A stretch of DNA of 64,000 bases from Syntrophomonas sp. (GTDB lineage Bacteria > Bacillota > Syntrophomonadia > Syntrophomonadales > Syntrophomonadaceae), in NCBI GenBank assembly GCA_016841425.1, contig JAENZE010000003.1:124001-188000 (forward strand), read 5' to 3'. The first letter of the stretch is position 1; each line of letters opens with the position of its first letter. Both the position numbers and the translations under genes were made by a program. This document shows positions 4,256 through 19,849 of the stretch, in pieces. Below the pieces are notes generated by a model that was given only the letters and a program-made list of their open reading frames with translations, did not search any database and was not told where the DNA came from.

Positions 4256-4537
4256 AATTCCACCTCCAGATTAAGAATCTGTAACTCATTCGCCAAAATT
4301 CACCCTGCTCCAGTCAACTCAACAAGCGTGTATTCACCTTAAGCCATATTATACCAAAATATCAAAGTAATTTATCGTCGAAATGTGTGAACTTAGTCAC
4401 ATGAGGCTAACCCTCATAGTCCCGCTCCGGCTCCCATTAAAAGGGGACTAATAGCTGCCATGGTCCTGGCATAAAATAACAAATATATCGACAGCCCATC
4501 CAATTAATGTCACTATCAGGCTGAATAACGCCCATAA

Positions 4538-4765
4538 TGGGGACTCTATATGGGGACATTCCGCTATACGGGGACATTCCCTGGCATGGGGACATTCCGC
4601 TATATGGGGACATTCCTGCCACCAAGTTCCCCAGGGGCTGGTGTGTCCCCTGACCTTGACTTGAGAATTCCATATTGCAGCCGGCAAAACTTGGCTACTC
4701 TCAACCTTCTCATACCTCTCAACCTGGTGTGTCCCCTGACCTTGACTTGAGACTCCCATATCCAC
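4538..4765. repeat. Intergenic hairpin-repeat block A
   Basis: This block holds several copies of GGGGACATTCC (4552 onward) spaced about 20-27 bases apart, then two copies of GGTGTGTCCCCTGACC with flanking CTTGACTTGAGA. It is the reverse complement of the arrangement in the other blocks (GGTCAGGGGACACACC ... GGAATGTCCCC). The GGGGACA and TGTCCCC ends pair to give long hairpins, as do the inner CACCA and TGGTG. The whole gap 4256-4873 has no credible gene. The block marks the left border of the AT-rich defence island. Confidence 0.8.
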
Positions 4766-4873
4766 TTCCCACTATAATCAATTGCCAATAAAAACTAATT
4801 CTTATGGAGGACTTTACTATAATATAGAAGAATATGTAAATATATTGGTTTTTCAGCGAGAGGGGACATTTAT

Positions 4874-5290
4874 TTGGCATTATTGAATGGCTTGCAGCGG
4901 GGAGACGTAATTGATAATAAGAGTTTAGTTGATATGTTTCAAGTTAGTCCCCAAGGTGGAATGAGACGATCTATTAAAACAAACAGCCTAGTAATCATAT
5001 CGGACCATACTCGGGGCAGTGTATATGAGGACCGTTGGATGGGTGATATTTTTCACTATACCGGTATGGGTCTAACGGGTGATCAAAGTCTATATTATCG
5101 ACAGAATAAGACCTTAGCTCAATCGGCTAGTAATGGTGTGAAAGTATATTTATTTGAGGTCTTTAAACCTAAGAAATATACTTTTCAAGGCCGGGTAGAA
5201 TTAGTTGGACGGCCATATAAGGATAGGCAACCTGACACTGAAGGGCAGATGCGTAATGTGTGGGTTTTTCCACTGAAGATTGTGGATTAA
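4874..5290 (+). CDS. Stand-alone SRA-like (YDG/ScoMcrA-type) modified-DNA-binding protein
   Basis: The 138 residues read as a single SRA-like domain of the kind found in McrA-type HNH restriction enzymes. The run is GDVIDNK, then GGMRRSIKTNSLVI, VYEDRW, FHYTGMGLTGDQSL, a GVKVYLFEV strand and RNVWVFPL at the end. Such domains flip out or read modified bases. There is no HNH or other nuclease motif in this protein, so it would need a partner; an HNH gene lies at the far end of the island. The start is TTG at 4874 after GAGAGGGG. It is separated from the next gene by 259 AT-rich bases. The family call is from pattern memory; the exact ligand is unknown. Confidence 0.7.
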   Translation: MALLNGLQRGDVIDNKSLVDMFQVSPQGGMRRSIKTNSLVIISDHTRGSVYEDRWMGDIFHYTGMGLTGDQSLYYRQNKTLAQSASNGVKVYLFEVFKPKKYTFQGRVELVGRPYKDRQPDTEGQMRNVWVFPLKIVD

Positions 5291-5549
5291 TCATATTACC
5301 TTTATATGTAATAACCCACCTTGAATCAGAAGAAATATTTTGGGTACTTGAGTTTTAGATTAAGAATGGACTTTTTGGTATGTCAAGTGCACATTAATGT
5401 CGTAAGTATCTATTTGTTATATTATTACGATCTTGATCTTAAAAAAGGGGAATTGTCGTAAATATGAGAATTCTCTATAATAATAATTTATTACGTTTAT
5501 TTTTGTTTTCAGAAGACTAGCGTATATATTACCTGATAGGAGGGATTTC

Positions 5550-6668
5550 TTGCTAATGGAAAACAATAAAGACATAAAGCTAAAGATTCTATTGAATGCT
5601 TTTAATAATGAGTTTCTAGCGACAAGGTCTAATACTACAAAGAAAGCATACATCAAGTATATTAATGATTTTTTCCAAACAGAAAATTTAGAAGATATTA
5701 CATTGAGCCAGGTTAGTTCGGTTTCCTTATCTGACGCTCAAATATATCACGATAATTTATTGAAAAAAGGTTTTCAGGAGGTTAGTGTAAATCACCGTAC
5801 CATAGCTTTGTCTTACTTTTACGATTTTCTATTAGAGAAGAACGTAACTAACATGAACCCATTTAGCAAATCACAAGTGTTAAAAAATTATACATTAGAT
5901 TCTTTACTAAAACTACAAATCTCAATGTGGCCAGATCATTCTATTAATAAAATTCAAGAGCTTAAAAAATTAGTTATAAACGAAGAAGAAGTAAAAATTG
6001 GTTTTTGGAGTCTACTAAGATATTTTCCTGACTGGAAAAATAAATCCAAAAAGAAATATGTTTTATTTCTTGATTTACTTGATAATTTAAATATAGGTTT
6101 AGAACCGGATTTCAGATTTACTGGGATAATTCCTGGAGTGAGTGATGATGTAATATTATTTTCACTTGACAATTATGAAGAAAAAGCTGCGTATAGCCCG
6201 GCTTATGCTTTCGCTTCCCTAAATCTAAAGCTAGGAGCTATGGTTTCCAAGGCCGATGGAATAGTAGTTGAAAAAGAAATTATATTACTCAAAAATCAGA
6301 TTAAGCGTTGGCCAGGCCTTAATGCGTTAGAGAAAAAACGACTTGAGTTATATTTGGATTGGATTTTATCTATGCCTATGGACAACAAAAGCATAAATAA
6401 GGGAGTAAGATTATTAAACATTGATGAAAAAAATGTTATTGCTGATTGGCTAATTAAGGTTTCATTGGCAGATGGGATTATACGACCAGAAGAAATTAAA
6501 TTAATGGAGAAGTTGTACTCAATAATGAACCTAGATACTAAAGAACTGCTGCAAAACATAGATGAAGACAATGTAGAGCCAATTACTAAAAAAACTAATA
6601 AAAATATTGAGAAAAATAATCCAACTGCAGTAGAACTATTAGACTTTCTATTGGATTATATAGGGTAA
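5550..6668 (+). CDS. SAM-like (integrase core-binding) domain fused to TerB-like repeats
   Basis: Residues about 12-105 look like the N-terminal core-binding (SAM-like) domain of tyrosine recombinases: NTTKKAYIKYINDFF, then HRTIALSYFYDFLLEKN. The catalytic R..HxxR..Y domain is absent. Residues about 210-345 instead carry two TerB-like helical units, each with an acidic turn: SKADGIVVEKEI and LADGIIRPEEIKLMEKLY. The final 45 residues are low-complexity, rich in Lys and Asn. The start is TTG at 5550, 6 bases after AGGAGGG; ATG 5556 is the alternative. It heads the plus-strand defence genes. TerB-like domains are often linked to stress and phage defence. The fusion is unusual and I know no named family for it. 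Confidence 0.6.
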   Translation: MLMENNKDIKLKILLNAFNNEFLATRSNTTKKAYIKYINDFFQTENLEDITLSQVSSVSLSDAQIYHDNLLKKGFQEVSVNHRTIALSYFYDFLLEKNVTNMNPFSKSQVLKNYTLDSLLKLQISMWPDHSINKIQELKKLVINEEEVKIGFWSLLRYFPDWKNKSKKKYVLFLDLLDNLNIGLEPDFRFTGIIPGVSDDVILFSLDNYEEKAAYSPAYAFASLNLKLGAMVSKADGIVVEKEIILLKNQIKRWPGLNALEKKRLELYLDWILSMPMDNKSINKGVRLLNIDEKNVIADWLIKVSLADGIIRPEEIKLMEKLYSIMNLDTKELLQNIDEDNVEPITKKTNKNIEKNNPTAVELLDFLLDYIG

Positions 6669-6707
6669 TAAAGTTCATTAAATGAAGCTTTTTATATTGA
6701 GGATTAT

Positions 6708-8789
6708 ATGACGAAAGAACCAAATATTTCTATCCATCAGCATAGGGTGATTGACAACAAAATAATAACAATGACTGAAGCATTAAACCAATTACTGCCT
6801 TTGGGTAACAGTTTAAGTATGGCTGTCGGTTATTTTTATTTAAGTGGTTTTCAGCTTATTCAGGACGCCTTGAATCAGGTTGGGGAAAAAGGAGGCGTTC
6901 GTTTAATAATGGGTAATAGAACTGATTATGGAACAGCTTGCGAAATTCAAGAAGGATTTACCGAATACAATCATGACTGTCAACCTCGATCAGATATAGA
7001 GCTTCGACCATTCCAAGCTCTTGAAGTTGAACTTGCACAAATAGAACCGGGATCAAGACAAGCATACGTGGCTTACCGTTTACGGGATCTTGTAGCCCAA
7101 GGAAAATTTCGAGTAAAAGTGTACACTGGGCCGGCTAATTATTTCCATGCAAAAGTATACCTCATTAGCCGAGAAGATCATTTAGATGGTTATGCAATTG
7201 CCGGGTCCAGTAATTTTAGCCGAGGAGGATTTACAGGCAACAGTGAGCTTAACGTTATGACAAAGGATGCCTTCCCAAGCCTAATGGGATGGTTTGATGC
7301 GCTATGGGATTCCAAAGACGTTTCAGACTTTGACCTAAAGTTGATAGATATTATTGAAAGTGCCGTAATTCGTCCACCTGATTATGGATCTGAATGGAAT
7401 GAAAACCAAGGGGATTATGAAATTTACGAGGGACCAGAAATCCCACCATTCATTAAATTACGTGATTACCAGAAAGAGGCCATAACGACATGGTTTAAAG
7501 CACGCGGCAGAGGTATCCTTGAGATGGCTACCGGAACTGGAAAGACGATAACTGCACTTGCCACTTGTGCGACTTTATTAAAACATGTTGAAAACCTAGC
7601 GGTAGTAATTATTTGTCCTTACCAGCATCTAGTAACGCAATGGGAACAAGAATGTCGCCACTTTAAAATGAAGCCCATTCTAGCATTTCAATCACGCAAA
7701 GCATGGGAAGAACCGCTAAACGCTAAGATTACAAGTTATAATATTGGTGCAATCTCTTCTGTTTGTTTAATCACCACTAATAGTACTTTCAGTTCCCCAT
7801 CTATGCAGGCCGCGTTGCATAAAATTAAGGGCAATATTCTGCTTATAGCAGATGAGGTTCACCATTTAGGTGCATCCAATTTGCGTCAATGCTTACCTGA
7901 TAATATTGAGTATCGTTTGGGTCTTTCTGCAACTCCAGACCGTTGGTTTGATGAGAGCGGTTCTGCAGCTTTGAATAATTACTTTGAAAAAGGAGTAATT
8001 TATCGTTTCGGGCTTAGTGAAGCGATTGGTACATACCTTACAGAGTACTATTATTATCCTCATTTCGTGACATTAACCGATGAAGAAAATGAAGAATATC
8101 TTGACCTTAGTAAAAAAATTGCTCGAGCCTTTATTTTTAACGAAGATTATGAACTTACCTCAAATAATGCTTTAAATCTACTCTTAATCAAACGAGCACG
8201 ACTCTTAAGTAGTGCGGCGAATAAATTAGTAGTGCTTAGAGACCTAATGAAGAATAGTACAGATAGTAAATATAACCTTTTTTATTGCGGTGATGCGCAA
8301 ATAGGCGGTGAGCGACAAATCGACTTGGTAATCTCCATTTTAGGTAAAGAGTTGGGGATGAGAGTCCACCCCTTTACGGCTCAGGAAAACCAAAAACAAA
8401 GGAAACAGCTTTTAAATCAATTCGAGAATGGTGTATTGCAAGGCCTTGTCGCTATTCGCTGTTTAGACGAGGGGGTAGACGTGCCTGCCACTCAAACCGC
8501 ATATATCTTGGCAAGTAGCACAAATCCTCGTGAATTTGTTCAAAGACGCGGGAGAGTATTGAGAAAACATCCAAATAAGAAATACTCTTATATTCATGAT
8601 TTTATAGTAATTCCTAGAAATCCTCAAGAAATAGATCAATTAGATACAGTTACGTTTAATATTGAACGAAAAATGATGACCAGAGAATTGAGACGCTTTC
8701 GGGAATTTGCAGAACTAGCTATTAACGGACCTCAGGCGTCCTTAAAGGTGCTTGAATTTGCTGAAATGTATAACCTACTAGATCTTTAA
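6708..8789 (+). CDS. PLD-nuclease/SF2 helicase, candidate Dnd-linked restriction enzyme
   Basis: Residues 1-200 form a phospholipase D-type nuclease domain with FHAKVYLI near residue 146 and AGSSNFSRGG near 165. Residues about 250-640 form a superfamily 2 helicase: the entry motif LRDYQKEAI, Walker A MATGTGKT near 275, DEVHH near 382, LSATPDR near 405, and the C-terminal motif FVQRRGRVLRKH near 612. Such proteins are annotated next to dnd genes as phosphorothioation-system restriction enzymes, as I recall. It would translocate on DNA and cut it. The ATG follows TTGAGGATT. It begins 39 bases after the SAM-TerB gene and is followed closely by the 55-residue gene, suggesting one operon. Confidence 0.85.
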   Translation: MTKEPNISIHQHRVIDNKIITMTEALNQLLPLGNSLSMAVGYFYLSGFQLIQDALNQVGEKGGVRLIMGNRTDYGTACEIQEGFTEYNHDCQPRSDIELRPFQALEVELAQIEPGSRQAYVAYRLRDLVAQGKFRVKVYTGPANYFHAKVYLISREDHLDGYAIAGSSNFSRGGFTGNSELNVMTKDAFPSLMGWFDALWDSKDVSDFDLKLIDIIESAVIRPPDYGSEWNENQGDYEIYEGPEIPPFIKLRDYQKEAITTWFKARGRGILEMATGTGKTITALATCATLLKHVENLAVVIICPYQHLVTQWEQECRHFKMKPILAFQSRKAWEEPLNAKITSYNIGAISSVCLITTNSTFSSPSMQAALHKIKGNILLIADEVHHLGASNLRQCLPDNIEYRLGLSATPDRWFDESGSAALNNYFEKGVIYRFGLSEAIGTYLTEYYYYPHFVTLTDEENEEYLDLSKKIARAFIFNEDYELTSNNALNLLLIKRARLLSSAANKLVVLRDLMKNSTDSKYNLFYCGDAQIGGERQIDLVISILGKELGMRVHPFTAQENQKQRKQLLNQFENGVLQGLVAIRCLDEGVDVPATQTAYILASSTNPREFVQRRGRVLRKHPNKKYSYIHDFIVIPRNPQEIDQLDTVTFNIERKMMTRELRRFREFAELAINGPQASLKVLEFAEMYNLLDL

Positions 8790-8803
8790 AGGAGGAGAAA
8801 CTA

Positions 8804-8971
8804 ATGGCAAGTAAAGAAGTTGAGGTAAGAGAATTACTTCAAAAAGCGTCACAGGAAGTGCGGGGCATTGTTGAGCAGGCTATCGATCTGGAGTACGCTA
8901 AAATTCATATGAATAACCCCAAGGGAATTAAAGAGGAAATTACTCAATTGGTTCGGGGGGTGATTAAATAA
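8804..8971 (+). CDS. 55-aa small protein of the Dnd-linked restriction operon
   Basis: A short gene with an excellent ribosome site, AAAGGAGGAG, 4-5 bases before ATG 8804. Its TAA overlaps the ATG of the next gene (TAATG), which implies translational coupling. The product is mostly helical and charged: it opens MASKEVEVRELLQKASQEVR and ends ITQLVRGVIK. There is no membrane segment or known motif. It lies between the helicase-nuclease and the DndD-like ATPase, so a small subunit or regulator of that complex is a fair guess. It is easily missed because of its size. I do not know its family. Confidence 0.75.
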   Translation: MASKEVEVRELLQKASQEVRGIVEQAIDLEYAKIHMNNPKGIKEEITQLVRGVIK

Positions 8972-10962
8972 TGATTCTTGATCAAATCCGAATCAAGAAT
9001 TTTCGTCAATATTATGGTCTGCAGACTATTAGGTTCTCCAAAGACAAAGATAAAAATGTCACCGTTATTCATGGGGATAATGGAGCAGGTAAGACCACTT
9101 TTTTAAATGCTCTGTTATGGGGCCTATATGGAAAAATTAGCCTTCCTAGACCTGGGACATTGGTTAGCGAAAAGGCAGAAGCGGAACTTAAAGAAGGTGA
9201 TACAGTTGAAATGTTCGTGGAGATAAGGTTTCGTGATCGTGTGCGTAATTATACAATAATGAGGAATTTAACTGGTACAAAACAACGAGGCCAGTTTCGT
9301 ACAACACAACCTTCACTTACAGTGACTATTATTGATGAGAAAGGTAAGACCATAGAACCTAAAAACCCGCAAAACATGATTGATGAAATTATGCCTAGAG
9401 AGATGAGTTCATACTTCTTTTTTGATGGGGAAAGAATTGATAATTTATCAAAAGAAGCAGGGGCAGAGGATATAAAAGAAGCAATCAAGACCATAATGGG
9501 TTTGAAAGTATTGGAACGGACCAAGGAACATTTAGATGATGTGCGGAAAATATTTTCCGCGGAGGTTAAATCTGCTGCGACTGGAGATCTGTCAATTTTA
9601 TTATCAAAACAGGAATCGCAGGAGGAACAAATAGAAGATTTAGAACAAAAAATCGTAGAAATTTTTAAAAATCGAAAAGCTGTGGTCCAGGAAAAGGAAG
9701 CTATTGTGGCTAAATTGCGAGAAGCTGAAGAGAGCCGTGTAATTCAGACTGAAAGGGACCGGCTTGAAAAAGATTTAACTGAAATACAAAAGGCAATTAA
9801 AGACATCGATCAAAACGTTAAGACTTTGTGCAGTAATCAAGGTTATTTGGCTTTTGCTAGGGTTATTCTAGAGCGCACACAATCAATTCTCGAAGATAAA
9901 AGACAAAAAGGAGAAATTCCAGTTGGAATTAAACAGCAATTTGTAGAAGATTTACTCGAGCGGCAACTTTGCATATGCGGTATTAAATTGGAGCCGGGTA
10001 GCCAACATTATAACGAAGTTGCAGCTTGGCTTAGTCAAGCAGGGACAAAAGAGTTGGAAGATAAATTCACGGAGGTGGCTGCTGGGATCAAGGTTATGTC
10101 CCAATATCGGATAGACCTTTTTAGTCAACTTAAAACTTATCGTTCACAACGAGAAAAGCAGCTTGATCATCAGCAAAGTATTGAGGAACAACTTGATGAG
10201 ATCAGTTCAAAATTAAGTGATAAGGATTCCGAAACAATACGCAGTTTGGAACGTCGTCGTCAGGAACTTGATGATAATATTAGGGATTGTGATGTTCAAG
10301 AAGGTAAAACGAGGGAAGCAGTAAGGAATTCTGAAGGTAAATTAGATGATATCAAGAAGGAAGTAAAAAAATACGAAGCATTAGAAGCGAAAACAGCTTT
10401 GGCAAAAAAGAGAATGGAAGCTTGCCAGGAAGCCCGAGACATTGTAGCCAAAATTCATGAGGCAGCGGCTTTAAAAACCAAAAGTAATCTTCAACTGAGA
10501 ATTAATGAGGTTTATACACATTTTCTTCGTAAGGGTTATTATGCAAAACTAAACGATGATTATTCTTTGCAGATTATTAAGGAATTTGGTGAAACGGAAA
10601 AGACCGTTGCGATGTCCCAAGGTGAGCGTCAGATAACCAGTCTAGCGTTTATAGGTGCACTAGTTGATATTGCTCGCGAACAGTATGAAAAGGGGAAGAA
10701 TAAGTTTTTTCGAGGTGGCATTTATCCAATTGTGATGGATTCTCCTTTTGGAACTCTTGATCCTGATCACAGGGCTAGAATAGCTCAGGGTATTCCCACC
10801 CTTTCTCATCAAGTTATTATTTTAGTTACTGATTCGCAGTGGGAAGGGGATGTTCAAAAACAGATCGGTAGCCGTATTGGTACCGAATATATACTTGTTA
10901 ATTACTCGCCTAAAAGCCCACGGCCTAGTCAATATGAATATACCGATATAAGGGAGGTTTAA
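8971..10962 (+). CDS. DndD-like SMC/Rad50-type ATPase (restriction-side paralogue)
   Basis: An SMC-type ATPase of 663 residues. Walker A, GDNGAGKTT, is near residue 35. The family-typical YFFFDGERI is near 150. Long coiled coils (about 205-300 and 365-500) flank a central ERQLCICG cysteine element near 333. The ABC signature MSQGERQ is near 549 and Walker B IVMDSPFGTLD near 588. It is closest in style to DndD, yet it is not in the dndBCDE operon, which has its own dndD on the other strand. It likely powers or gates the adjacent helicase-nuclease. It overlaps the upstream 55-residue gene by one base and is 2 bases from the next gene, so it is firmly in that operon. Confidence 0.85.
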   Translation: MILDQIRIKNFRQYYGLQTIRFSKDKDKNVTVIHGDNGAGKTTFLNALLWGLYGKISLPRPGTLVSEKAEAELKEGDTVEMFVEIRFRDRVRNYTIMRNLTGTKQRGQFRTTQPSLTVTIIDEKGKTIEPKNPQNMIDEIMPREMSSYFFFDGERIDNLSKEAGAEDIKEAIKTIMGLKVLERTKEHLDDVRKIFSAEVKSAATGDLSILLSKQESQEEQIEDLEQKIVEIFKNRKAVVQEKEAIVAKLREAEESRVIQTERDRLEKDLTEIQKAIKDIDQNVKTLCSNQGYLAFARVILERTQSILEDKRQKGEIPVGIKQQFVEDLLERQLCICGIKLEPGSQHYNEVAAWLSQAGTKELEDKFTEVAAGIKVMSQYRIDLFSQLKTYRSQREKQLDHQQSIEEQLDEISSKLSDKDSETIRSLERRRQELDDNIRDCDVQEGKTREAVRNSEGKLDDIKKEVKKYEALEAKTALAKKRMEACQEARDIVAKIHEAAALKTKSNLQLRINEVYTHFLRKGYYAKLNDDYSLQIIKEFGETEKTVAMSQGERQITSLAFIGALVDIAREQYEKGKNKFFRGGIYPIVMDSPFGTLDPDHRARIAQGIPTLSHQVIILVTDSQWEGDVQKQIGSRIGTEYILVNYSPKSPRPSQYEYTDIREV

Positions 10963-10964
10963 TT

Positions 10965-11417
10965 ATGGCTGATCGTTTTCGTCGCCCTAAAGACAAGGAA
11001 GATATATTCAAGCGTTTGGTTAGTGCAGATGATGCTCCCTTTATGACGTTCAAGGATTTATTCATTGTGGCGGCTTGTATTGGTTATACCAAACAAAAAA
11101 AGATAAACCTACCAACAGGTGGAGAGCAAATACATTGGTCAGTTTTTAAACAAGGCACTGATCAAGTTATGATAAATGCTATTGCGTTGTGTGAAAACGA
11201 AGACTTTAATATTCTTCGAGAAACTGTAGGAGCAACGGACGCAAAATTTGCTTTAATTGAACAATATGCTAGTGCTGGTCTCGATGAACTAAAAACAGTC
11301 TTAATTGATTCCCCTGGTGATCCTTTAGATAATCTGGTTGAATTAATATTTCAACAGGAAGCAAACACCGAAATTAAGTCCCGTTCCTTTTTGGATGAGA
11401 TTGATATACAATTTTAG
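10965..11417 (+). CDS. Dnd system-associated small protein (150 aa)
   Basis: This soluble 150-residue protein starts MADRFRRPKDKEDIFKRL and has a hydrophobic helix-like stretch FKDLFIVAACIGYTKQ around residue 28. The pattern resembles the family annotated as dnd system-associated protein 4, which is found beside phosphorothioation genes; that assignment is from memory and moderate. There are no catalytic motifs. It starts 2 bases after the DndD-like gene, which makes cotranslation likely. It probably forms a complex with the SMC-like ATPase and the helicase. Confidence 0.7.
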   Translation: MADRFRRPKDKEDIFKRLVSADDAPFMTFKDLFIVAACIGYTKQKKINLPTGGEQIHWSVFKQGTDQVMINAIALCENEDFNILRETVGATDAKFALIEQYASAGLDELKTVLIDSPGDPLDNLVELIFQQEANTEIKSRSFLDEIDIQF

Positions 11418-11488
11418 AGTTAATTAGTTAACATGACAATGTATAAATGATAAGCTTTTACTAAAATTTAAGGGAAGAGGTCGAATTT

Positions 11489-13264
11489 ATGCATCCAAGG
11501 GATTATTTTATAGCACAGGAAACAACTCTTTATAATTTATTCGTTGATGGAGATTATAAATTTAAAATTCCTGATAATCAAAGGCACTTTTCATGGAGCG
11601 ATTTGCAGTTACAACAACTTTGGAAAGATCTAAAAGAAACCGTTTCTCGCTCATATACAGCGGGTTATGACCTATTACGAGATGATCAGATAGAACCACA
11701 TTTTTTTGGTGCTATTTATTTAACAGAAGAATCACTACGTTCTGGCTTGCAAGACATTTCAGATGGGCAACAGCGTCTAATATGCTGCACTATACTTTTA
11801 AAGTTACTTTCCGAATATTCTTCTAAATTAAGCGCCGAAGCACATGCAGGAATAATGGGATTAATAATACCTTGTTTGCAAAAAAGTAAATATGGAGAAC
11901 CATATCAGCCAAGATTAGAATTAGATGATACTGTAGACAGTTTTTTTCGCAACTACATCTTGTTAAAAAATTCAATGATTGAACGTAATACATATTTAGA
12001 AACCCAATCCATCCCCAGTTACATGGATTCAATATCTAACATTATTGCATGTAATGCTTTTTTCAATAAGTGCCTGGAGTTAGAATTGCCAGATTTTCTG
12101 TTGGCAGAAAACCCTTTGCTTTATGAAAAGAAATTGCTTGCTTTCATTAAAACTCTTCAGGACTTTTTTGTACTTCTTCGCATTCAGGTTAAAAAAGAAG
12201 CAACCATGTATGTTATATTTGAAACATTAAATGACCGCGGTTTGGATCTTTCTGAATCGGATTTGATTAAGAATCTGTTTTTTAAACAACCAAATATAGC
12301 GAAACAAGCAATAAAAGAAAAGTGGGATAACATAACCGAAAATATAGAAAATGAAGACTTAACTTCCTATATTCGATTCCATTACAATAGCAAAAATACG
12401 GACATAGTTGATCCGAAAAACCTTTTTAATAAGGTAAAAGGGTATTTAGAACGCCCTGATGTTGATCCGATTGTATATCTGCAGGATTTACTAGATGAAT
12501 CAGTTTGGTATGGACATCTGACTTTGAAAGGTACGTCCTTTTGGAACAATGAAACGAATGAAAAACTTAATGATCTACTAAACAGGATTAGCGTTTCCCA
12601 TAGTCTTCCTCTCCTTCTGGCTGGAGCAGTTCAATTCGGCAATAGTCAGCATGAATTCCTGCGATTGGTTAATGCAATATTGGCCTTCTGTTTTCGCTTT
12701 TTTACCATTGGAACAGCCAAAGTTGAAGAACTAGAGAGGAAAATGAATACATGGGCAAATGCACTCAGGACTGGCGATTCGGTGGACCAATGTATAGATA
12801 AAATGAAGGACGTATCTAAGGACGACGTATTTAAGTTGGATTTTGAGAACTTTTCTACTAAATCTAATGATTTAGCTTTTTATGTTTTTTACCAATTGGA
12901 AAAATATAAAGGTAGCAATGCTGGGCTGATACCACACCCCCATAGTACTAGCCAACATGTTGAACATATTATGCCTAAAAAGCCCGGCAATTATTGGCCC
13001 CACGTTAGCAATGACCCATTATATAATAAATTTGTATATCGTTTAGGTAACCTTTTGATATTGGAAAGGGATATTAATCAGAGGGTTAAAAATAAAGAAT
13101 ATTCTTTTAAAATTAGTAATTCCAATAATCAGGATTATAATCATTCTCATCTTTACTACCCTCGTCAGGTGGCTGGAAGTTATTCATCTTGGGATTTAAA
13201 AAATATACAAGACCGGCAGATGGAAATAGCAAAAGAAGCAGTTATTGTATGGGCAATTGATTAG
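11489..13264 (+). CDS. DUF262/DUF1524 (GmrSD/SspE-like) restriction nuclease
   Basis: The N-terminal DUF262 domain shows IPDNQRHFSW (about residue 28), ISDGQQRLICCTILL (about 90) and FETLNDRGLDLSESDLIKN (about 245). The C-terminal DUF1524 domain carries an HNH-like nuclease signature, HVEHIMPKKPGNYW near 490, and YRLGNLLILERDIN near 520. This is the architecture of type IV GmrSD enzymes, which cut modified phage DNA, and of SspE, which is stimulated by phosphorothioate DNA. A standard ribosome site, GGGAAGAGG, precedes the ATG. It lies 71 bases after the 150-residue gene and converges on dndE, so it may be a second, independent effector that reads the Dnd mark. Confidence 0.85.
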   Translation: MHPRDYFIAQETTLYNLFVDGDYKFKIPDNQRHFSWSDLQLQQLWKDLKETVSRSYTAGYDLLRDDQIEPHFFGAIYLTEESLRSGLQDISDGQQRLICCTILLKLLSEYSSKLSAEAHAGIMGLIIPCLQKSKYGEPYQPRLELDDTVDSFFRNYILLKNSMIERNTYLETQSIPSYMDSISNIIACNAFFNKCLELELPDFLLAENPLLYEKKLLAFIKTLQDFFVLLRIQVKKEATMYVIFETLNDRGLDLSESDLIKNLFFKQPNIAKQAIKEKWDNITENIENEDLTSYIRFHYNSKNTDIVDPKNLFNKVKGYLERPDVDPIVYLQDLLDESVWYGHLTLKGTSFWNNETNEKLNDLLNRISVSHSLPLLLAGAVQFGNSQHEFLRLVNAILAFCFRFFTIGTAKVEELERKMNTWANALRTGDSVDQCIDKMKDVSKDDVFKLDFENFSTKSNDLAFYVFYQLEKYKGSNAGLIPHPHSTSQHVEHIMPKKPGNYWPHVSNDPLYNKFVYRLGNLLILERDINQRVKNKEYSFKISNSNNQDYNHSHLYYPRQVAGSYSSWDLKNIQDRQMEIAKEAVIVWAID

Positions 13265-13412
13265 TAATTGATGGCTTTACCAATCTTATGCAAGTTGGTG
13301 GTGGTGTGCGCAATATTCTTAATTGTAAATAATTACCATAAAACGATAGTGCTCCGAGTGTCAATATAGTTTTCGTTTTACCATAATGGCTTATAATTAC
13401 ATAACAAATATC

Positions 13413-13793
13413 TTATATACTAGTTTTACTGTGACAAAGAGTCGTTAAGAATTTTTCCGCGTTACCAGCATATTCGTATTTATTGCTGAGTTTTAAAGCG
13501 CCTCTATCTAGATGTTTTTTTATATATTCTGGGAAGTATTCATCGTCATTAAGGTGTCGCCTGCAATGTTGGGAAATTAGGGCTTTATATACAACATCAT
13601 GCTCACCTGTAAGAGTATGCCGATTAAATTCAAGGCCAGAATTGTCCACTTCCAGGTCATCAATCGGGTCAAGATCTTGCAGCGATAAACCGATGGCTAA
13701 ACGAGCTAGAATATTAGGTGCTAGTCTTGTTTTAATTTGCAAGTCTTTCAAAATATGCATGGTTTTAGCTGATGTCCGCATTCTGAAGTGCAT
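13413..13793 (-). CDS. dndE: DNA phosphorothioation protein DndE
   Basis: DndE is a small protein of the phosphorothioate-modification complex, reported to bind nicked DNA and to act with DndCD. The 126 residues contain the family features LAIGLSLQ near residue 31, FNRHTLTGEHDVVYKALI near 56 and RGALKLSN near 98. It is the last gene of the minus-strand dnd operon and overlaps dndD by 29 bases. The same DNA is open on the plus strand for 108 codons, but that frame has no ribosome site and no family resemblance. Confidence 0.87.
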   Translation of the reverse strand: MHFRMRTSAKTMHILKDLQIKTRLAPNILARLAIGLSLQDLDPIDDLEVDNSGLEFNRHTLTGEHDVVYKALISQHCRRHLNDDEYFPEYIKKHLDRGALKLSNKYEYAGNAEKFLTTLCHSKTSI

Positions 13794-15804
13794 AAAAGTT
13801 TCTCCTTAGATCAAAATATTTATTTTCAATTACAATCGAATGATCCGAGTCAGCAGTTAATGTATATTCTCTATTGGTACGAGGTTTAATCAGCTCATAA
13901 TATTCTGCATCAATTTCAGTATCAGTACTTAAAACGATTACTTGAGGACTAATGTATGGTAGTAAGTTATTAATTATTTTTTCCCGATGTGAGGTATCCA
14001 GCCGGCCCAGAAGGGTATCGAAAAATATTGGAGTTTCTCGACCCGAAGTTTTTATTAATGCCCAGGTGATGCTGAGTAAAAAAATTTGTTTTTCTCCTGC
14101 AGATAGAAGACTATGCTTTATGGGATTATTATCGTTATCGATGAGAGTAATTTTGAAATCCTGGGTATTAAAGTTTACTTTAGCATCTTTAATAAAATCG
14201 TCTTTCCGAATGATAGTTAAAAACGAGTTTAAAAAATGCTTTTTAAATGTGCTGGTTTTAACCCTAATAATTTCCTGAATAAAACTGTCGAGGGCTTTAT
14301 CCATCCTGTGGCATATAGCGAAAATATTTTCGTCTTTTTGGGCTTGAGTTATTTTCTTTTCAATGCGTTCTAACTCTACAGCGACCTTATCCATATTCTG
14401 CGTGGTCTCCTGATGTTTCTGTCTTAGTTGTTCATAGTGCTTCACTGCTTCGATACTTTTATTGTTATTTCCCTGGATATCCTGAAGCAGTTGGTTTAAG
14501 TCTTGGTTATCGCGGTTGTAGTACACTTGCTTATTCAATTTGGAGATTTTAGAATTGTGGGTAGTTATTTTTTTAATAGTGTCTGAAATTGTCTTGGGGT
14601 TGAACTTGTCTACTCGCTGTACAATGCTGTATAATTGATATTTTTCTGATTCATTGAGGTCATGAATTATGGGTGAAGACGTTTTGTTATGGCTAATTAG
14701 AGAATCGATTAAGTCATCCAGGAGCTGTCGTGAATAATCCTCGGCTACTCCTGGCCGTGAGACTTTAATATTACGGTCTAAAATCAATTCTTCATATATT
14801 TGGCGCGAGGATTCAATTCCTGTTTTTGCAAAGGCATGGTAAATAGTATACTGTTGTTCGCGGCTTACTTGCTCATGGGTTTGTTTAAGTAAATCCTTTA
14901 CCATAAAAAACGGCAGTAACTCGGATATACTATTTCTAAGCAATTCAGCTGCTTCCTTTTTTCCCTGCTCTAATCTAATTATAGTATTTTTAGCATTTTC
15001 ACGAGCCTCTACCAGCAGTCCTCCGTTTAAGCGAAACTCATTTTCGAACTGGACAATTTCTTCCTTCAAGTCCTTAATTCTTTGCTCTAATCTTAGTAAC
15101 TCTGATTCTTCCTCTTCAAATTGAAGTTTAATAAAGGCAAAATCTTGAGAGACAGCAGTATAATTTTTCTGTTCGAGATCCAATTGCTCAAATATATTAG
15201 CCTGCAGCAGATAATTCCGACTATCTTCCTTCAAAAGATATACTAAATCCAAATTTAATAATGTGAAAAAAGCTTCTTTCAAGTTTATTAGAAGTCTATC
15301 TTCGTTAAGCTGGAGGTGAATGTCTTCCCCATCAAACAAGAAAAATTCAAATAAACTGGGCGGCCAGAATTTGCGTACAAAGTTTTCAAAATCAACAGCT
15401 TCTTTAGAGCTTAAAGATTCATTGTTCTTGAAAACAGACAAGGTCTCTTTGATATCGGAATTTTCCAGAAACCATTGGCGTTTTATCGTGATTTCATCAC
15501 TTGCACCATTTACTCCCATAGAAAATTTGACAGTAACCCCCGCCTGGTTTTCATTTCGCATAAATGCTGACTTATTCATTTTTTCCTTGATTAAAGCCTT
15601 GTACTGGGTATTAATATGTTTAAACCCAAATGACAGCGGCCCATAAAGCCCTATTTTTATAGAATTCAGCAGAGTTGTTTTACCAGCACCGTTTTTAGCT
15701 CCAATTAGTATGATGTTTTTCTCAGAGCTATCGGGTGTGAGATCAAATTTTACAATACCATCATAGATGCCAAAGTTCTGTATGCTTATTTCTCTAAAAA
15801 TCAT
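13765..15804 (-). CDS. dndD: DNA phosphorothioation ATPase DndD
   Basis: SMC-like ATPase of the sulfur-modification complex, 679 residues. Walker A, GAKNGAGKTT, is near residue 36. FFLFDGEDIHLQL is near 155. Coiled coils run from about 205 to 300 and about 400 to 490. The signature LSAGEKQIFLL is near 567 and Walker B IFFDTLLGRLD near 592. It overlaps dndC upstream by 11 bases and dndE downstream by 29 bases, the compact layout typical of dnd operons. DndD hydrolyses ATP, probably to nick or open DNA for sulfur insertion by DndC. It differs from the plus-strand paralogue in lacking the central cysteine element. Confidence 0.92.
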   Translation of the reverse strand: MIFREISIQNFGIYDGIVKFDLTPDSSEKNIILIGAKNGAGKTTLLNSIKIGLYGPLSFGFKHINTQYKALIKEKMNKSAFMRNENQAGVTVKFSMGVNGASDEITIKRQWFLENSDIKETLSVFKNNESLSSKEAVDFENFVRKFWPPSLFEFFLFDGEDIHLQLNEDRLLINLKEAFFTLLNLDLVYLLKEDSRNYLLQANIFEQLDLEQKNYTAVSQDFAFIKLQFEEEESELLRLEQRIKDLKEEIVQFENEFRLNGGLLVEARENAKNTIIRLEQGKKEAAELLRNSISELLPFFMVKDLLKQTHEQVSREQQYTIYHAFAKTGIESSRQIYEELILDRNIKVSRPGVAEDYSRQLLDDLIDSLISHNKTSSPIIHDLNESEKYQLYSIVQRVDKFNPKTISDTIKKITTHNSKISKLNKQVYYNRDNQDLNQLLQDIQGNNNKSIEAVKHYEQLRQKHQETTQNMDKVAVELERIEKKITQAQKDENIFAICHRMDKALDSFIQEIIRVKTSTFKKHFLNSFLTIIRKDDFIKDAKVNFNTQDFKITLIDNDNNPIKHSLLSAGEKQIFLLSITWALIKTSGRETPIFFDTLLGRLDTSHREKIINNLLPYISPQVIVLSTDTEIDAEYYELIKPRTNREYTLTADSDHSIVIENKYFDLRRNFYALQNADIS

Positions 15805-17185
15805 TTGATGTTACCTCATCTTCATCAATATGTAACCAGTCCTGGCATAAAATAGAATGCATTTCCTTGTATAAACCATGCTTAAACTTGTAGCCATAAT
15901 GTTTTTCTTCCACTTTCAACAGCTTATGGACTAATTCCAAGGGAATATCATTTTCATTGCACGCGTCTTCCAAAACCCTTAACTCATCTTGAGTAAATAA
16001 TGGGCGTTCTTGTTCCTGCCATTGCAGAGGTTTACCGATTATTTGCTGAAATATTTTGGGGACTGAGTTTTCCCAATTTCCTTGATCCATCCAGATATTA
16101 TCTATCAATTTAAGTTCCTCTTCACTTATCAGGAGCTGAAAACCATATTTGCTAGTGTATGCTGAATCAGATAGGATAGTGGACTGTGTTGTAAGTAGTT
16201 CCTGCAGCATTTCTTTTCTGGCTTCCAAAGTAAATGGTCCCAATCCGCGCCGCCTAGTATCATCTTTCCCAATATAGTAAATACTTCCGTTTTTTCTTTT
16301 AAGCTCACGTTTTTTAGGGTTATCTCTGATCTGGTATAAGTAGTTACGAAACTTAAGTAATGGTTCAAGTTCTGGATGGTTGTTGTTAATGAATCCAACT
16401 AAAGCTTTATCTTCTTTGACCACAGTGCAGGTCCAGCAACCGAATCGGCTGGTACCGGCAGCCGGGGCAGACTTGTCCAGCATAAAAACAGGTTCTTCTG
16501 ATGAGTCTTGATATATATCCAATAACTTATGATGATCAGTGTCCCAAGGGGAATTATCTGCTAATAAATATCTCCATACTTCATCTGTACTTAAGTCTTC
16601 TATAGGAGCAAAAACGTATGCATTAGTTAGAGAAGTATGTTTCTTTAGAACATGATTCTCAATTCTATGCTTTTCAAGTACCTGTGCACGACTGGAACTT
16701 TCTGCTTTGCGTACTCCTAATACAACAATAACCTCGCCATACTCAGATATTCTTTCACGAATAAATTTGTTTGTAGGCTCTATTTTCAATCTATCTGTAC
16801 ACCAGCGAAAGTGCTGGCGAGGAGAGGGATATCCTCGACCTATCAGATTTACCCAGAATGACTTCTCGTATTCAGGTTTCACTGGATAAGTGCTTACGGG
16901 TAGACCCTTGGCATCAGCACTCTGCTGTATATTACCAAGATTATAATCAATATGAGATATGATCACAGGGTTTTCTACTAAAGTATTAGATGAAATAATA
17001 TACACTTGTTTTATTCTATCATGAGGTCGTAGCTGGGAAAGAGCTTCAAAAACAAGTTGTACCACTAGTGTAGAATCCTTGCCTCCACTATAGCCTATTA
17101 CCCACGGGCGTTTATCGGCCTGATAAATATCTGTTATTTGCTGTTTAATAGAGAGGTAAGGATCATAAAATTTAATGTTCGGCAT
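15794..17185 (-). CDS. dndC: DNA phosphorothioation sulfurtransferase DndC
   Basis: PAPS-reductase-like PP-loop enzyme of 463 residues that activates the DNA backbone and transfers sulfur. The PP-loop SGGKDSTLV is near residue 29. FRWCTDRLKIEP near residue 128 and FGCWTCTVVKED near residue 249 supply cysteines for the expected Fe-S cluster. LGVRKAESSSRA near 157 is also typical. It overlaps dndB by 14 bases and dndD by 11, so expression is coupled. The sulfur donor DndA is absent from the window; a housekeeping IscS/NifS would have to deliver sulfur, as reported for other dnd hosts. Confidence 0.93.
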   Translation of the reverse strand: MPNIKFYDPYLSIKQQITDIYQADKRPWVIGYSGGKDSTLVVQLVFEALSQLRPHDRIKQVYIISSNTLVENPVIISHIDYNLGNIQQSADAKGLPVSTYPVKPEYEKSFWVNLIGRGYPSPRQHFRWCTDRLKIEPTNKFIRERISEYGEVIVVLGVRKAESSSRAQVLEKHRIENHVLKKHTSLTNAYVFAPIEDLSTDEVWRYLLADNSPWDTDHHKLLDIYQDSSEEPVFMLDKSAPAAGTSRFGCWTCTVVKEDKALVGFINNNHPELEPLLKFRNYLYQIRDNPKKRELKRKNGSIYYIGKDDTRRRGLGPFTLEARKEMLQELLTTQSTILSDSAYTSKYGFQLLISEEELKLIDNIWMDQGNWENSVPKIFQQIIGKPLQWQEQERPLFTQDELRVLEDACNENDIPLELVHKLLKVEEKHYGYKFKHGLYKEMHSILCQDWLHIDEDEVTSNDF

Positions 17186-18266
17186 TAGAAATCAATCCTT
17201 GTTCAAGTTTTTCTTCATCGGGGCTTAGGGGAATGGATAGTATTTGTTTAATTTTAGCACTGGTTAGAAGAATATTTGTCTTACTTTTTATTATTTTACC
17301 CTGTGTACTAAAGGCTCGGTCTTGCCAGTCAGCTACATTGTCACGCTGCCAATTAATTTGATCCAGTTTCGTAATGTAATCTTGCCAATCAGGATAGTTG
17401 TTTATCCATAGATAATTAAAAACTACTGCCATTGCTTCTAAAACTACTCCGTGTGAGCTCAAATACTTCAATCGTAAATCTGCAGCAGTTATCAATTTAT
17501 TTTTAACCAGGTTCCACTCGCTAATAGACTCGCATAGAATTTTCCAATACTGTTCGATAAACTCAATATCTTCAGTACTTAGTCTATTTGATTTTTTATT
17601 TCCGAGTAGTATTTTATTTGCATTATACAAACTACTTAAGGTGAAAATCTTAGGGGAATATTTGGGAAGAGAAGAGTTCTCTTTGTCAGTTAGTACCTGA
17701 AGAAGATCGATTGTGTATATAAGACGCTTAGTCAAAATTGACAAATGGTCGCGTGAATCATATAGGATTCCTATTGACTTTGTAGTATTTATTGCATGTT
17801 TGTTAAGGTCAGCGAACATTTGCTGACTGTTGATTAGACCTTGATCATGAAAGATCACAACGGAAATAGTTTCATTACCAAGTTGTGGATTTTCTTTTAA
17901 TGCTTCTTCAATAGCAGCTCTACGGTGTTGGCCATCATTTATAACAAAACTGGCATCCATTGAAATAATTAATCGCCCAATATTTGGATCATGATCGCTT
18001 ATGGGGACGAATTCAAGTTCACCATCAATAGATACGGTTATTGACGAAAATACATAATCCGTAGGATTTTCAGTTATGTAATTAACAATATATGGGATGC
18101 GCGACCGGTTTAATATACGTTGAGCACGATGCTCAGGGGGTAGTTCCTCTTCGTTGAAAATAAATAGTTTTGGTATAAGTTTTAAGGGACACATCGTTAT
18201 AAAAAAATCCCTATTCGCCTGAATACCCCTTACAGCTGGGAACGTATAAGAATAATTGTATTCCAT
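17172..18266 (-). CDS. dndB: DNA phosphorothioation regulator DndB (DGQHR family)
   Basis: First gene of the modification operon. The 364 residues include the defining motif INDGQHRRAAIEEAL near residue 116 and ADLNKHAINTTKSI near 151, typical of the DndB/ParB-like DGQHR family. DndB is not needed for modification itself but tunes how many sites are modified and, in Salmonella, represses the dnd promoter. The ATG follows TAGGAGTTATT. A promoter with repeated CAATATGT boxes lies directly upstream and is a candidate autoregulatory site. Confidence 0.9.
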   Translation of the reverse strand: MEYNYSYTFPAVRGIQANRDFFITMCPLKLIPKLFIFNEEELPPEHRAQRILNRSRIPYIVNYITENPTDYVFSSITVSIDGELEFVPISDHDPNIGRLIISMDASFVINDGQHRRAAIEEALKENPQLGNETISVVIFHDQGLINSQQMFADLNKHAINTTKSIGILYDSRDHLSILTKRLIYTIDLLQVLTDKENSSLPKYSPKIFTLSSLYNANKILLGNKKSNRLSTEDIEFIEQYWKILCESISEWNLVKNKLITAADLRLKYLSSHGVVLEAMAVVFNYLWINNYPDWQDYITKLDQINWQRDNVADWQDRAFSTQGKIIKSKTNILLTSAKIKQILSIPLSPDEEKLEQGLISNAEH

Positions 18267-18307
18267 AATAAATAACTCCTACGTACGTAAATAAAGCTAT
18301 TTTAAAC

Positions 18308-18348
18308 AAAATATACCAATATGTAATATAAGTCAAGTCGCAATATGT
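18308..18348 (-). promoter_or_regulatory. dnd operon promoter with direct-repeat boxes
   Basis: Reading the minus strand, TTGACT (18331-18336) and TATTTT (18308-18313) are 17 bases apart, a sigma-A type promoter 42 bases ahead of dndB. Two identical boxes, CAATATGT on the plus strand at 18317-18324 and 18341-18348, flank the -35 with a 24-base period. They would put a bound protein over the promoter. DndB or the divergent HNH product is a possible ligand. Confidence 0.6.
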
Positions 18349-18464
18349 GTTTTGTTCGTGGAAGGTAATAGTCTTTAAGTTTAGGTTGCAAACCTATAGG
18401 AGGAAAATTACCTAATGCTTTAGAATAATATAGGTATTCAGAAAAAATAAGGAAGTTATTGTAT

Positions 18465-19448
18465 ATGCAAGGTTGGAAACTGAAAGAGGGAAGAATCAAC
18501 TCTGCAAAACTCTCTGAAGATGAACTTTGGGGATTATTTAATTATGTTTTTTCTACTAGATCTAAAAATCAGTCAAGTTACAAGTTTGGCCTAATTAGAT
18601 CATTAATAGAAAACCTTTATAATGTCGATGATAAACTGATACTTTCTTATGACAAGTTATTTTCTACATTTACTAATGTATACTGGAATCTAATAATTAA
18701 GTATGGTTTGTCTCAAAGTGACAGTAGTCACAAACAATCAGCCATCGAAAAGGTATTGTATACTGCTCAGATGAGCCATGAAATACCAGATCAATTGAGC
18801 TTTGATCAGTTGTCTGAAATAGCTCAACTATCTATATTGAAAGACATAAAGAAAAACGGAAAAAGATATGTCTTTGGGGCTCTTTATCAGGATATGGAAG
18901 GTGTATTATATGGTTTTTCTAACAAAAATGAAATATTGCAATTCAATTCAATAGCATATACATTCATGAAAAAATACCACTCTACAATATTTCGACTTAA
19001 TAATTACGAGTGGGCCAAATTCCTAGAAAAGAATAACACTGTTGCGGTAGGGTTTATTAATTCAATTGAAGGCTTAACCAAAAGAGATTCTTTGGAGTGG
19101 TATAGAAACATATTGGAAGAAAATACGGAAAGAAAATGCTTTTATTGCGGAAAAGAAATCAAACATTCTGTTTTTCATGTTGATCATTTTATCCCTTGGT
19201 CATATCTCCATAGTGATAACCTTTGGAATTTTGTTTTAGCTTGTCAAAGGTGTAATCTTTCTAAGCATAATAACTTACCAGAACAAATGTTTTTGGAAAA
19301 GCTTGTGGAAAGGAATCGCATGCTTAATGATTCAGATGATGTGCAAGTGATTAATCAACTTGGGAACTATAGATCAACAAATCTGCTTGAATTGTATAAG
19401 TATGCAGAACGAAACGGATTTAAAACGGGTTGGACACCTCCCTATTAA
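18465..19448 (+). CDS. HNH endonuclease
   Basis: The 327-residue product ends in an HNH nuclease domain: ERKCFYCGKEI near residue 222, HVDHFIPWSYL near 238 and WNFVLACQRCNLSKHNNLP near 253. The zinc-binding CxxC pairs and the catalytic His of VDH are intact. The N-terminal 200 residues are unrecognised and may bind DNA or a partner. I chose ATG 18465, 9 bases after AAGGAAG, over TTG 18459, which would be only 3 bases from it. The gene diverges from dndB and shares the AT-rich composition of the island, so it is probably part of the defence cargo. Confidence 0.85.
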   Translation: MQGWKLKEGRINSAKLSEDELWGLFNYVFSTRSKNQSSYKFGLIRSLIENLYNVDDKLILSYDKLFSTFTNVYWNLIIKYGLSQSDSSHKQSAIEKVLYTAQMSHEIPDQLSFDQLSEIAQLSILKDIKKNGKRYVFGALYQDMEGVLYGFSNKNEILQFNSIAYTFMKKYHSTIFRLNNYEWAKFLEKNNTVAVGFINSIEGLTKRDSLEWYRNILEENTERKCFYCGKEIKHSVFHVDHFIPWSYLHSDNLWNFVLACQRCNLSKHNNLPEQMFLEKLVERNRMLNDSDDVQVINQLGNYRSTNLLELYKYAERNGFKTGWTPPY

Positions 19449-19528
19449 TGTTTAAATTACCTACAAAGACTAAAACATGAAAAGCACGACCATGACGGTT
19501 TCTGTAATTTTATTCAGGAGGACAAATA

Positions 19529-19849
19529 ATGACTGTAATCAAATACAACAAACTAATCCGCGATTTAATTCCACAAATAATAGAAAAATCCAATAAGAAA
19601 GCCATAACCAGCATAGCAAATGATGACGCGGAATACATTGCATTTCTTAATAATAAACTAGAAGAAGAACTGGATGAATATAAAACAAGTGGTGATATTG
19701 AAGAACTGGCTGATATTCAAGAGGTTATTGATTCTCTTGTTAGGGCCAGGGGACTATCAGCAGACGATTTCGAAGCCTTGTGTTTGAAGAAACATGAAGA
19801 GCGAGGTGGATTTGAGGGCCGAATAATCCTGATAGAGGTCATTGAATAA
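19529..19849 (+). CDS. MazG-like / phosphoribosyl-ATP pyrophosphohydrolase-like protein
   Basis: A single all-alpha NTP-pyrophosphatase domain of 106 residues. It starts YNKLIRDLIPQII, then has the metal-binding acidic cluster LEEELDEY near residue 46 and EELADIQEVIDSL near 59. Stand-alone proteins like this hydrolyse unwanted nucleoside triphosphates in house-cleaning, and some act in phage defence by depleting nucleotides. The ribosome site CAGGAGGAC is strong. It is at the right edge of the defence island, so a defence role is possible but not shown. A histidine-pathway role is unlikely, since no his genes are near. Confidence 0.8.
   Translation: MTVIKYNKLIRDLIPQIIEKSNKKAITSIANDDAEYIAFLNNKLEEELDEYKTSGDIEELADIQEVIDSLVRARGLSADDFEALCLKKHEERGGFEGRIILIEVIE

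What the first reader, a model, noticed from the sequence alone, without database searches (positions are those of the whole stretch)
5550..6668. Integrase-type SAM-like domain joined to TerB-like repeats without a recombinase domain
The N-terminal part looks like the DNA-binding arm of a tyrosine recombinase, but the catalytic domain is replaced by two TerB-like units with ADGI-type acidic turns. This could be a DNA-binding sensor or an adaptor for the defence operon that follows 39 bases downstream.
Basis: inference. Interest (0 to 1): 0.66.

Follow-up and report, generated by a model that had tools for sequence, protein, structure and literature searches.

The report
Recombinase-arm and Shango-core hybrid protein
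Just in front of a DNA-sulfur-based anti-phage system, this bacterium carries an intact gene that joins the DNA-gripping arm of a recombinase to the core of a protein from a different anti-phage system (Shango), which suggests that defence systems swap a shared connector part.

Summary
ORF 5550-6668 (372 aa) has a tyrosine-recombinase core-binding (SAM-like) domain (aa ~10-107; Pfam E 2e-7; predicted fold matches XerA/XerD, Z ~10.8) and no recombinase catalytic domain. The rest is not two TerB units. It is one TerB domain plus the domain before it, and together (aa 113-345) they are the central part of SngA, the TerB protein of the Shango anti-phage system (leave-one-out profile 174 bits; best shuffle 7). 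SngA's TerB_N, TerB_C and usual N-terminal membrane segment are absent, and the genome has no match to the SngB-type ATPase family. All 65 SngA-type relatives fetched from genome contigs sit beside sngB and none beside dnd/pbe. The window gene instead lies 39 bp upstream of a complete PbeABCD-GmrSD operon opposite dndBCDE, within a ~14-kb island: a congener has the same flanks with an McrBC-like pair between them. I found no second copy of this fusion; 20 other PbeA loci lack it. Best reading: a non-catalytic accessory adaptor of the Pbe machine. DNA binding by the arm is doubtful, because three basic positions invariant in XerC/D-like relatives are lost. Architecture secure; mechanism inferred. 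New variant of a known kind.

The parts
5550..6668 (+). SAM-like/SngA-core fusion protein, 372 aa (TTG start; alternative ATG at 5556)
5453..5481 (+). promoter-like site TTGTCG-17-TATAAT upstream of the fusion gene (consensus match only; the scan overall is not clearly enriched over shuffles)
5577..5870 (+). core-binding (SAM-like) domain of tyrosine-recombinase type, aa ~10-107, containing the conserved NP (aa 103-104) that closes the domain
   Evidence: PF02899 E 2.2e-7; alignment to XerC/D-like proteins of relatives; model pLDDT 85; XerA Z 10.9, XerD Z 10.7
5886..6191 (+). SngA 'middle' domain, aa 113-214
   Evidence: tblastn/blastp to SngA; leave-one-out profile covers aa 113-352
6192..6584 (+). 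TerB domain, aa 215-345 (one domain holding both ADG turns)
   Evidence: PF05099; 2ou3_A Z 9.9
6708..8789 (+). pbeA: PLD nuclease + SF2 helicase (TIGR04095 dnd_restrict_1)
8804..8971 (+). pbeB candidate, 55 aa, between pbeA and pbeC (by position only)
   Evidence: no PADLOC match; position as in PMC6459918
8971..10962 (+). pbeC: DndD-like ABC ATPase
10965..11417 (+). pbeD / dnd_assoc_4 (TIGR04062)
11489..13264 (+). GmrSD-type (Orf5/HEC-06-like) restriction protein
13413..18266 (-). dndE, dndD, dndC, dndB (phosphorothioation genes)
5291..19516 (.). segment without match in the congener G021, whose flanks are conserved on both sides: the defence island that carries the fusion gene as its left-most gene

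Best explanation
The gene encodes a soluble, non-enzymatic accessory adaptor of the PbeABCD phosphorothioate-dependent defence machine, made by fusing a tyrosine-recombinase core-binding domain to the middle+TerB core of the Shango protein SngA. Proposed action: the SngA-derived core docks on the helicase/ATPase part of the machine (PbeA/PbeC), as it presumably docks on SngC/SngB in Shango, while the recombinase-type head takes the place of SngA's membrane segment and TerB_N as the part that selects a target (a DNA structure or a protein). Shown: the domain make-up, the loss of the catalytic domain and of TerB_N/TerB_C, an open frame with SngA's conserved residues largely kept, the same-strand position 39 bp ahead of pbeA, the island boundaries, and no match to the SngB ATPase family elsewhere in the genome. 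Inferred: co-transcription, docking on PbeA/PbeC, and what the head recognises.
For: PF02899 and PF05099 both pass their cut-offs and no catalytic domain is hit. SngA-core similarity by tblastn E 2e-19 to 9e-17 for the best plasmid matches and down to 4e-33 within the fetched contig candidates; leave-one-out profile 174 bits against 7 for shuffles. Of columns conserved in 34 SngA rows, 19 of 26 are kept, including D236, E243, D308, G309 and E315 (the rows were fetched with a P-[EAD]-E-[IV]-K pattern, so P313/E315/K317 are biased). The model is confident over aa 120-340, and the arm matches recombinase core-binding domains. In G021 the two flanks are conserved and the segment between 5291 and 19516 is replaced by an McrBC-like pair, so the gene lies within the exchangeable Pbe/Dnd island. 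No PF10923 (SngB-type ATPase) match in the genome and no other copy of the protein. A TerB protein with a helicase and an ATPase is anti-phage in Shango (PMC10250203).
Against: PbeABCD defends without such a gene (PMC6459918), and 20 of 20 PbeA loci from other genomes of the phylum lack it, so it is not a core part. No interaction evidence exists. The slot before pbeA is variable (cysteine desulfurase, Sigma70_r4 protein, GmrSD), so adjacency alone is weak. GC of the gene (30%) is lower than that of pbeA (39%), which fits separate acquisition. No second instance of the fusion was found, so no conservation of the pairing can be shown.
Confidence: 0.42

Rival explanations
1. It is a transcriptional regulator of the pbe (and dnd) genes: the recombinase-type head binds operator DNA, as in the SPbeta repressor MrpR, which has a recombinase fold without recombinase activity, and the TerB half senses a signal.
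For: First gene of the operon, upstream intergenic region of ~260 bp with a promoter-like site. MrpR (8a0a, Z 8.9) and the Phi3T repressor SroF (9rd5, Z 9.7) are among the fold matches of the head; MrpR is a DNA-binding repressor (PMC10516654). Sigma70_r4-type proteins fill the same slot before pbeA in other loci.
Against: MrpR keeps both the CB and the catalytic-fold domain; here only the CB domain is present. Basic positions invariant in XerC/D-like CB domains are lost: R to H82, K/R to S88, R/K to D92. SngA cores are not known as regulators.
Confidence: 0.22
2. It is an independent small defence or immunity gene that merely sits in the island, acting on its own or as an inhibitor or decoy of Shango-like systems.
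For: Variable slot in front of pbeA, different GC, no fixed partner, not required for Pbe in other hosts.
Against: Same strand with 39 bp to pbeA and no terminator-like site between. All 65 SngA-core relatives fetched from genome contigs lie in the Shango gene set, not alone.
Confidence: 0.2
3. It is a chance chimera: debris of an sngA gene joined to an integrase fragment during island turnover, expressed or not, without function.
For: Apparent singleton; both parents are mobile-element or defence genes; an sngA gene interrupted by a resolvase reading frame exists (L055).
Against: 372 codons open with a ribosome-binding site; the join falls at the CB-domain end (NP) and near the SngA middle-domain start; conserved TerB residues kept; ~30% identity to the nearest SngA means long divergence without decay.
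Confidence: 0.11

Closest known systems
SngA of Shango (TerB_N-middle-TerB-TerB_C protein; PADLOC SngA)
   Same: aa 113-345 align with its middle and TerB domains (about 21-33% identity); acidic TerB residues kept; defence context
   Different: lacks TerB_N, TerB_C and the N-terminal membrane-like stretch found in 49 of 59 full-length SngA; has a recombinase arm instead; no sngB or sngC beside it
XerC/XerD-type tyrosine recombinase, core-binding (SAM-like) domain
   Same: fold and core motif (T30, Y34, F41, G74, F90, N103-P104)
   Different: no catalytic domain; three basic positions invariant in XerC/D-like relatives lost
PbeABCD (CxC ABC-ATPase/DndE-centred) phosphorothioate-dependent defence
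   Same: all four pbe genes follow directly; dnd genes opposite
   Different: the fusion protein is not one of the four defining components and is absent from 20 other PbeA loci of the phylum
MrpR (SPbeta) and SroF (Phi3T) repressors
   Same: recombinase fold reused; MrpR has lost recombinase function; the head matches their CB domain
   Different: MrpR keeps both the core-binding and the catalytic-fold domain, and SroF is a full-length repressor chain of about 310 residues; no TerB

Membership tests
Shango SngA | middle + TerB core | tested here: met
   leave-one-out profile 174 bits, aa 113-352
Shango SngA | TerB_N (PF13208) domain | tested here: not met
   Pfam; own profile
Shango SngA | TerB_C (PF15615) domain | tested here: not met
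   Pfam; own profile
Shango SngA | adjacent sngB (BrxC/D-type ATPase) and sngC (helicase) | tested here: not met
   neighbours are pbe genes; no PF10923 match in the genome; 65/65 SngA-type relatives have sngB, 62/65 sngC
Tyrosine recombinase | core-binding SAM-like domain | tested here: met
Tyrosine recombinase | catalytic domain with R/K/H/R/Y residues | tested here: not met
   no catalytic-domain hit at E<=1; C-terminal half is SngA core
TerB (PF05099) | score above gathering cut-off and TerB fold | tested here: met
   24.9 vs 24.4 bits; 2ou3_A Z 9.9, 2h5n_A Z 9.6
PbeABCD component | is one of PbeA, B, C, D | tested here: not met
   no PADLOC hit at E<=0.1; all four slots are filled by other genes (PbeB by position)
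PbeABCD accessory protein | needed for or modulates Pbe defence | not testable with these tools
   needs deletion and phage assay

The most novel reading that the evidence does not exclude
The SngA middle+TerB core is a portable connector that plugs into helicase/ATPase defence machines of different kinds. Here it has been moved from Shango into a phosphorothioate-sensing Pbe system and given a recombinase-type recognition head, making a Shango-Pbe hybrid with a new target specificity.
Probability: 0.22. Interest if true: 0.68.

Novelty: new variant of a known kind. Interest (0 to 1): 0.45.

Why it matters
I found no published mechanism for SngA in the literature I could search. A natural minimal copy of its core, freed from TerB_N, TerB_C and the membrane segment and placed in front of a different helicase/ATPase machine, would make a direct test possible: does the TerB core alone bind SF2 helicases or ABC-type ATPases of defence systems? 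It would also be a case of the recombinase arm being reused without the catalytic domain.

Tried and rejected
Recombinase function: rejected, no catalytic domain. Two separate TerB units: rejected, one domain. PbeB identity: rejected; a 55-aa ORF sits in the PbeB position and the fusion has no PADLOC hit. Obligate Pbe partner: rejected for this phylum by 20 PbeA loci without it. Searches for a second copy found none: own genome; class, 63 genomes; phylum, 398 genomes, one distant SngA-like hit; viral contigs; plasmids, where the significant matches examined were SngA; phages, none; GTDB contigs. The single-protein contig scans used poorly chosen peptide patterns and the alignment scan of genome contigs used one narrow pattern, so rarity is suggested, not proven. 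Alignments A1 and A2 gave no usable pattern. A joint alignment with integrases misplaced them on TerB, so the arm was modelled apart; its alignment was made of recombinases, which favours that fold, but the Pfam hit is independent. A PDB sequence search gave nothing significant. The middle domain had no fold search of its own. A viral structure library gave no match with E<=0.001.

Full report
What is there. ORF 5550-6668 on the + strand encodes 372 aa. It starts with TTG, 5 nt after AGGAGGG (an ATG lies six bases on), and stops 39 bp before the next gene. Pfam finds the recombinase SAM-like domain PF02899 (aa 26-97, E 2.2e-7, above cut-off) and TerB PF05099 (aa 228-333, E 2.7e-5, just above cut-off), and no recombinase catalytic domain.

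The arm. Aligned with XerC/D-like proteins of related genomes, aa 10-107 keep the core motif (T30, Y34, F41, G74, F90) and the NP (103-104) that closes the core-binding domain. Modelled apart, it folds with mean pLDDT 85, and the PDB matches listed are recombinase or integrase core-binding domains, or repressors of that fold: XerA Z 10.9, XerD Z 10.7 (rmsd 1.9 over 84 residues), SroF Z 9.7, MrpR Z 8.9. The model's alignment consisted of recombinases, so the fold match is not independent of it; the Pfam score is. Three positions of the last helix that are basic in all 14 XerC/D-like relatives read H82, S88 and D92 here, which argues against ordinary DNA gripping. Other recombinase families were not compared at these positions.

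The C-terminal half. A protein search of plasmids found 663 records at E<=0.01, none covering at least 80% of the query; the annotated best matches are mostly 'TerB N-terminal domain' proteins. The one examined in full is SngA of Shango by PADLOC, followed by SngB (a BrxC/D-type ATPase) and SngC (a helicase). [quoted passage not shown] The similarity covers SngA's middle and TerB domains. A profile from 63 SngA cores without the window protein gives it 174 bits over aa 113-352; the best of 1000 shuffles gives 7. TerB_N and TerB_C are absent, and so is the N-terminal membrane-like stretch seen in 49 of 59 full-length SngA. With SngA rows as alignment the model is confident from aa 120 to 340, and the TerB part matches known TerB-like structures (2ou3 Z 9.9, 2h5n Z 9.6).

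Surroundings. Downstream on the same strand: pbeA (PLD + SF2 helicase), a 55-aa ORF in the pbeB position, pbeC, pbeD and a GmrSD-type gene; on the opposite strand dndE-D-C-B. In the congener G021 the gene upstream (window 4874-5290) and the MazG-like gene (19529) are conserved, and between them lie an MrcB_N-AAA gene and a DUF2357-PDDEXK gene, McrBC-like. So 5291-19516 is an exchangeable defence island, and the fusion gene is its left-most gene. The genome has no match to the BrxC/D-type ATPase family PF10923 and no second SngA core.

How general. In 20 PbeA loci from other genomes of the phylum no protein like this one occurs; the gene directly before pbeA is variable: cysteine desulfurase, a ~1000-1300-aa protein (Sigma70_r4 in several), GmrSD or others. 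Conversely, 65 of 65 SngA-type relatives from GTDB contigs have sngB nearby, 62 have sngC, and none has pbe/dnd genes in the stretch held. I found no second fusion, but the scans had limits.

Interpretation. The two parents are clear; what the hybrid does is inferred. PbeABCD works without it elsewhere (PMC6459918), so it is an accessory part at most. The simplest reading uses the common feature of both systems: each has an SF2 helicase and an ATPase. The SngA core would be the connector to such a machine, and the recombinase-type head replaces SngA's own N-terminal part as the recognition end. Rivals are a transcriptional regulator of the MrpR kind (PMC10516654), an independent passenger, and a non-functional chimera; the intact frame, the clean junction and the kept TerB residues speak against the last.

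Novelty. Shango, Pbe and recombinase-fold repressors are known. The fusion of a core-binding domain with an SngA core, and an SngA core in a phosphorothioate defence island, I found in no paper searched. PMC10853773, a broad survey of Dnd neighbourhoods, does not mention TerB or integrase in its main text.

Noticed in passing
L155 (G021:C5:28500-43500), minus strand 4585-9357: The congener carries an McrBC-like pair (MrcB_N-AAA; DUF2357-PDDEXK) exactly where the window has its Dnd/Pbe island: a defence hotspot between the gene at window 4874-5290 and the MazG-like gene at 19529.
   Followed up: yes
L157:3384-6437; L045 minus 9638-13045; L049:4491-8453: A ~1000-1300-aa protein with a Sigma70 region 4 (in some with RNA polymerase alpha-CTD-like/HhH parts) lies directly before pbeA in several Pbe loci, an apparently unnamed accessory gene.
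   Followed up: partly
window 8804-8971: A 55-aa ORF with a good ribosome-binding site between pbeA and pbeC, the likely PbeB; no family model matches it.
   Followed up: partly
window 11489-13264: A GmrSD/SspE-like (Orf5, HEC-06-like) restriction gene follows pbeD, also in the locus L041, where another gene (400 aa, 13781-14983) lies inside the matching stretch.
   Followed up: partly
window 18459-19448: HNH endonuclease gene at the right end of the island, divergent from dndB; best family hits are IscB/Cas9/PtuB-type HNH domains.
   Followed up: no
window ~4530-4780: Short sequence related to many scattered copies in congeners G020 and G021; overlaps an ORF (4448-4765, minus) rich in ECPHIAECPHARECP repeats.
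   Followed up: no
L055 (IMGVR_UViG_2744054524_000007) 7068-9017: An sngA gene whose 5' part is replaced by a resolvase reading frame, apparently a mobile-element insertion in frame.
   Followed up: no
L003, L004 (haloarchaeal plasmids): A haloarchaeal SngA (L004) carries a TM2-type membrane domain at the N terminus, the L003 frame reads a similar stretch, and 49 of 59 full-length SngA proteins from the contig scan have an N-terminal hydrophobic stretch, so SngA is probably membrane-anchored.
   Followed up: partly
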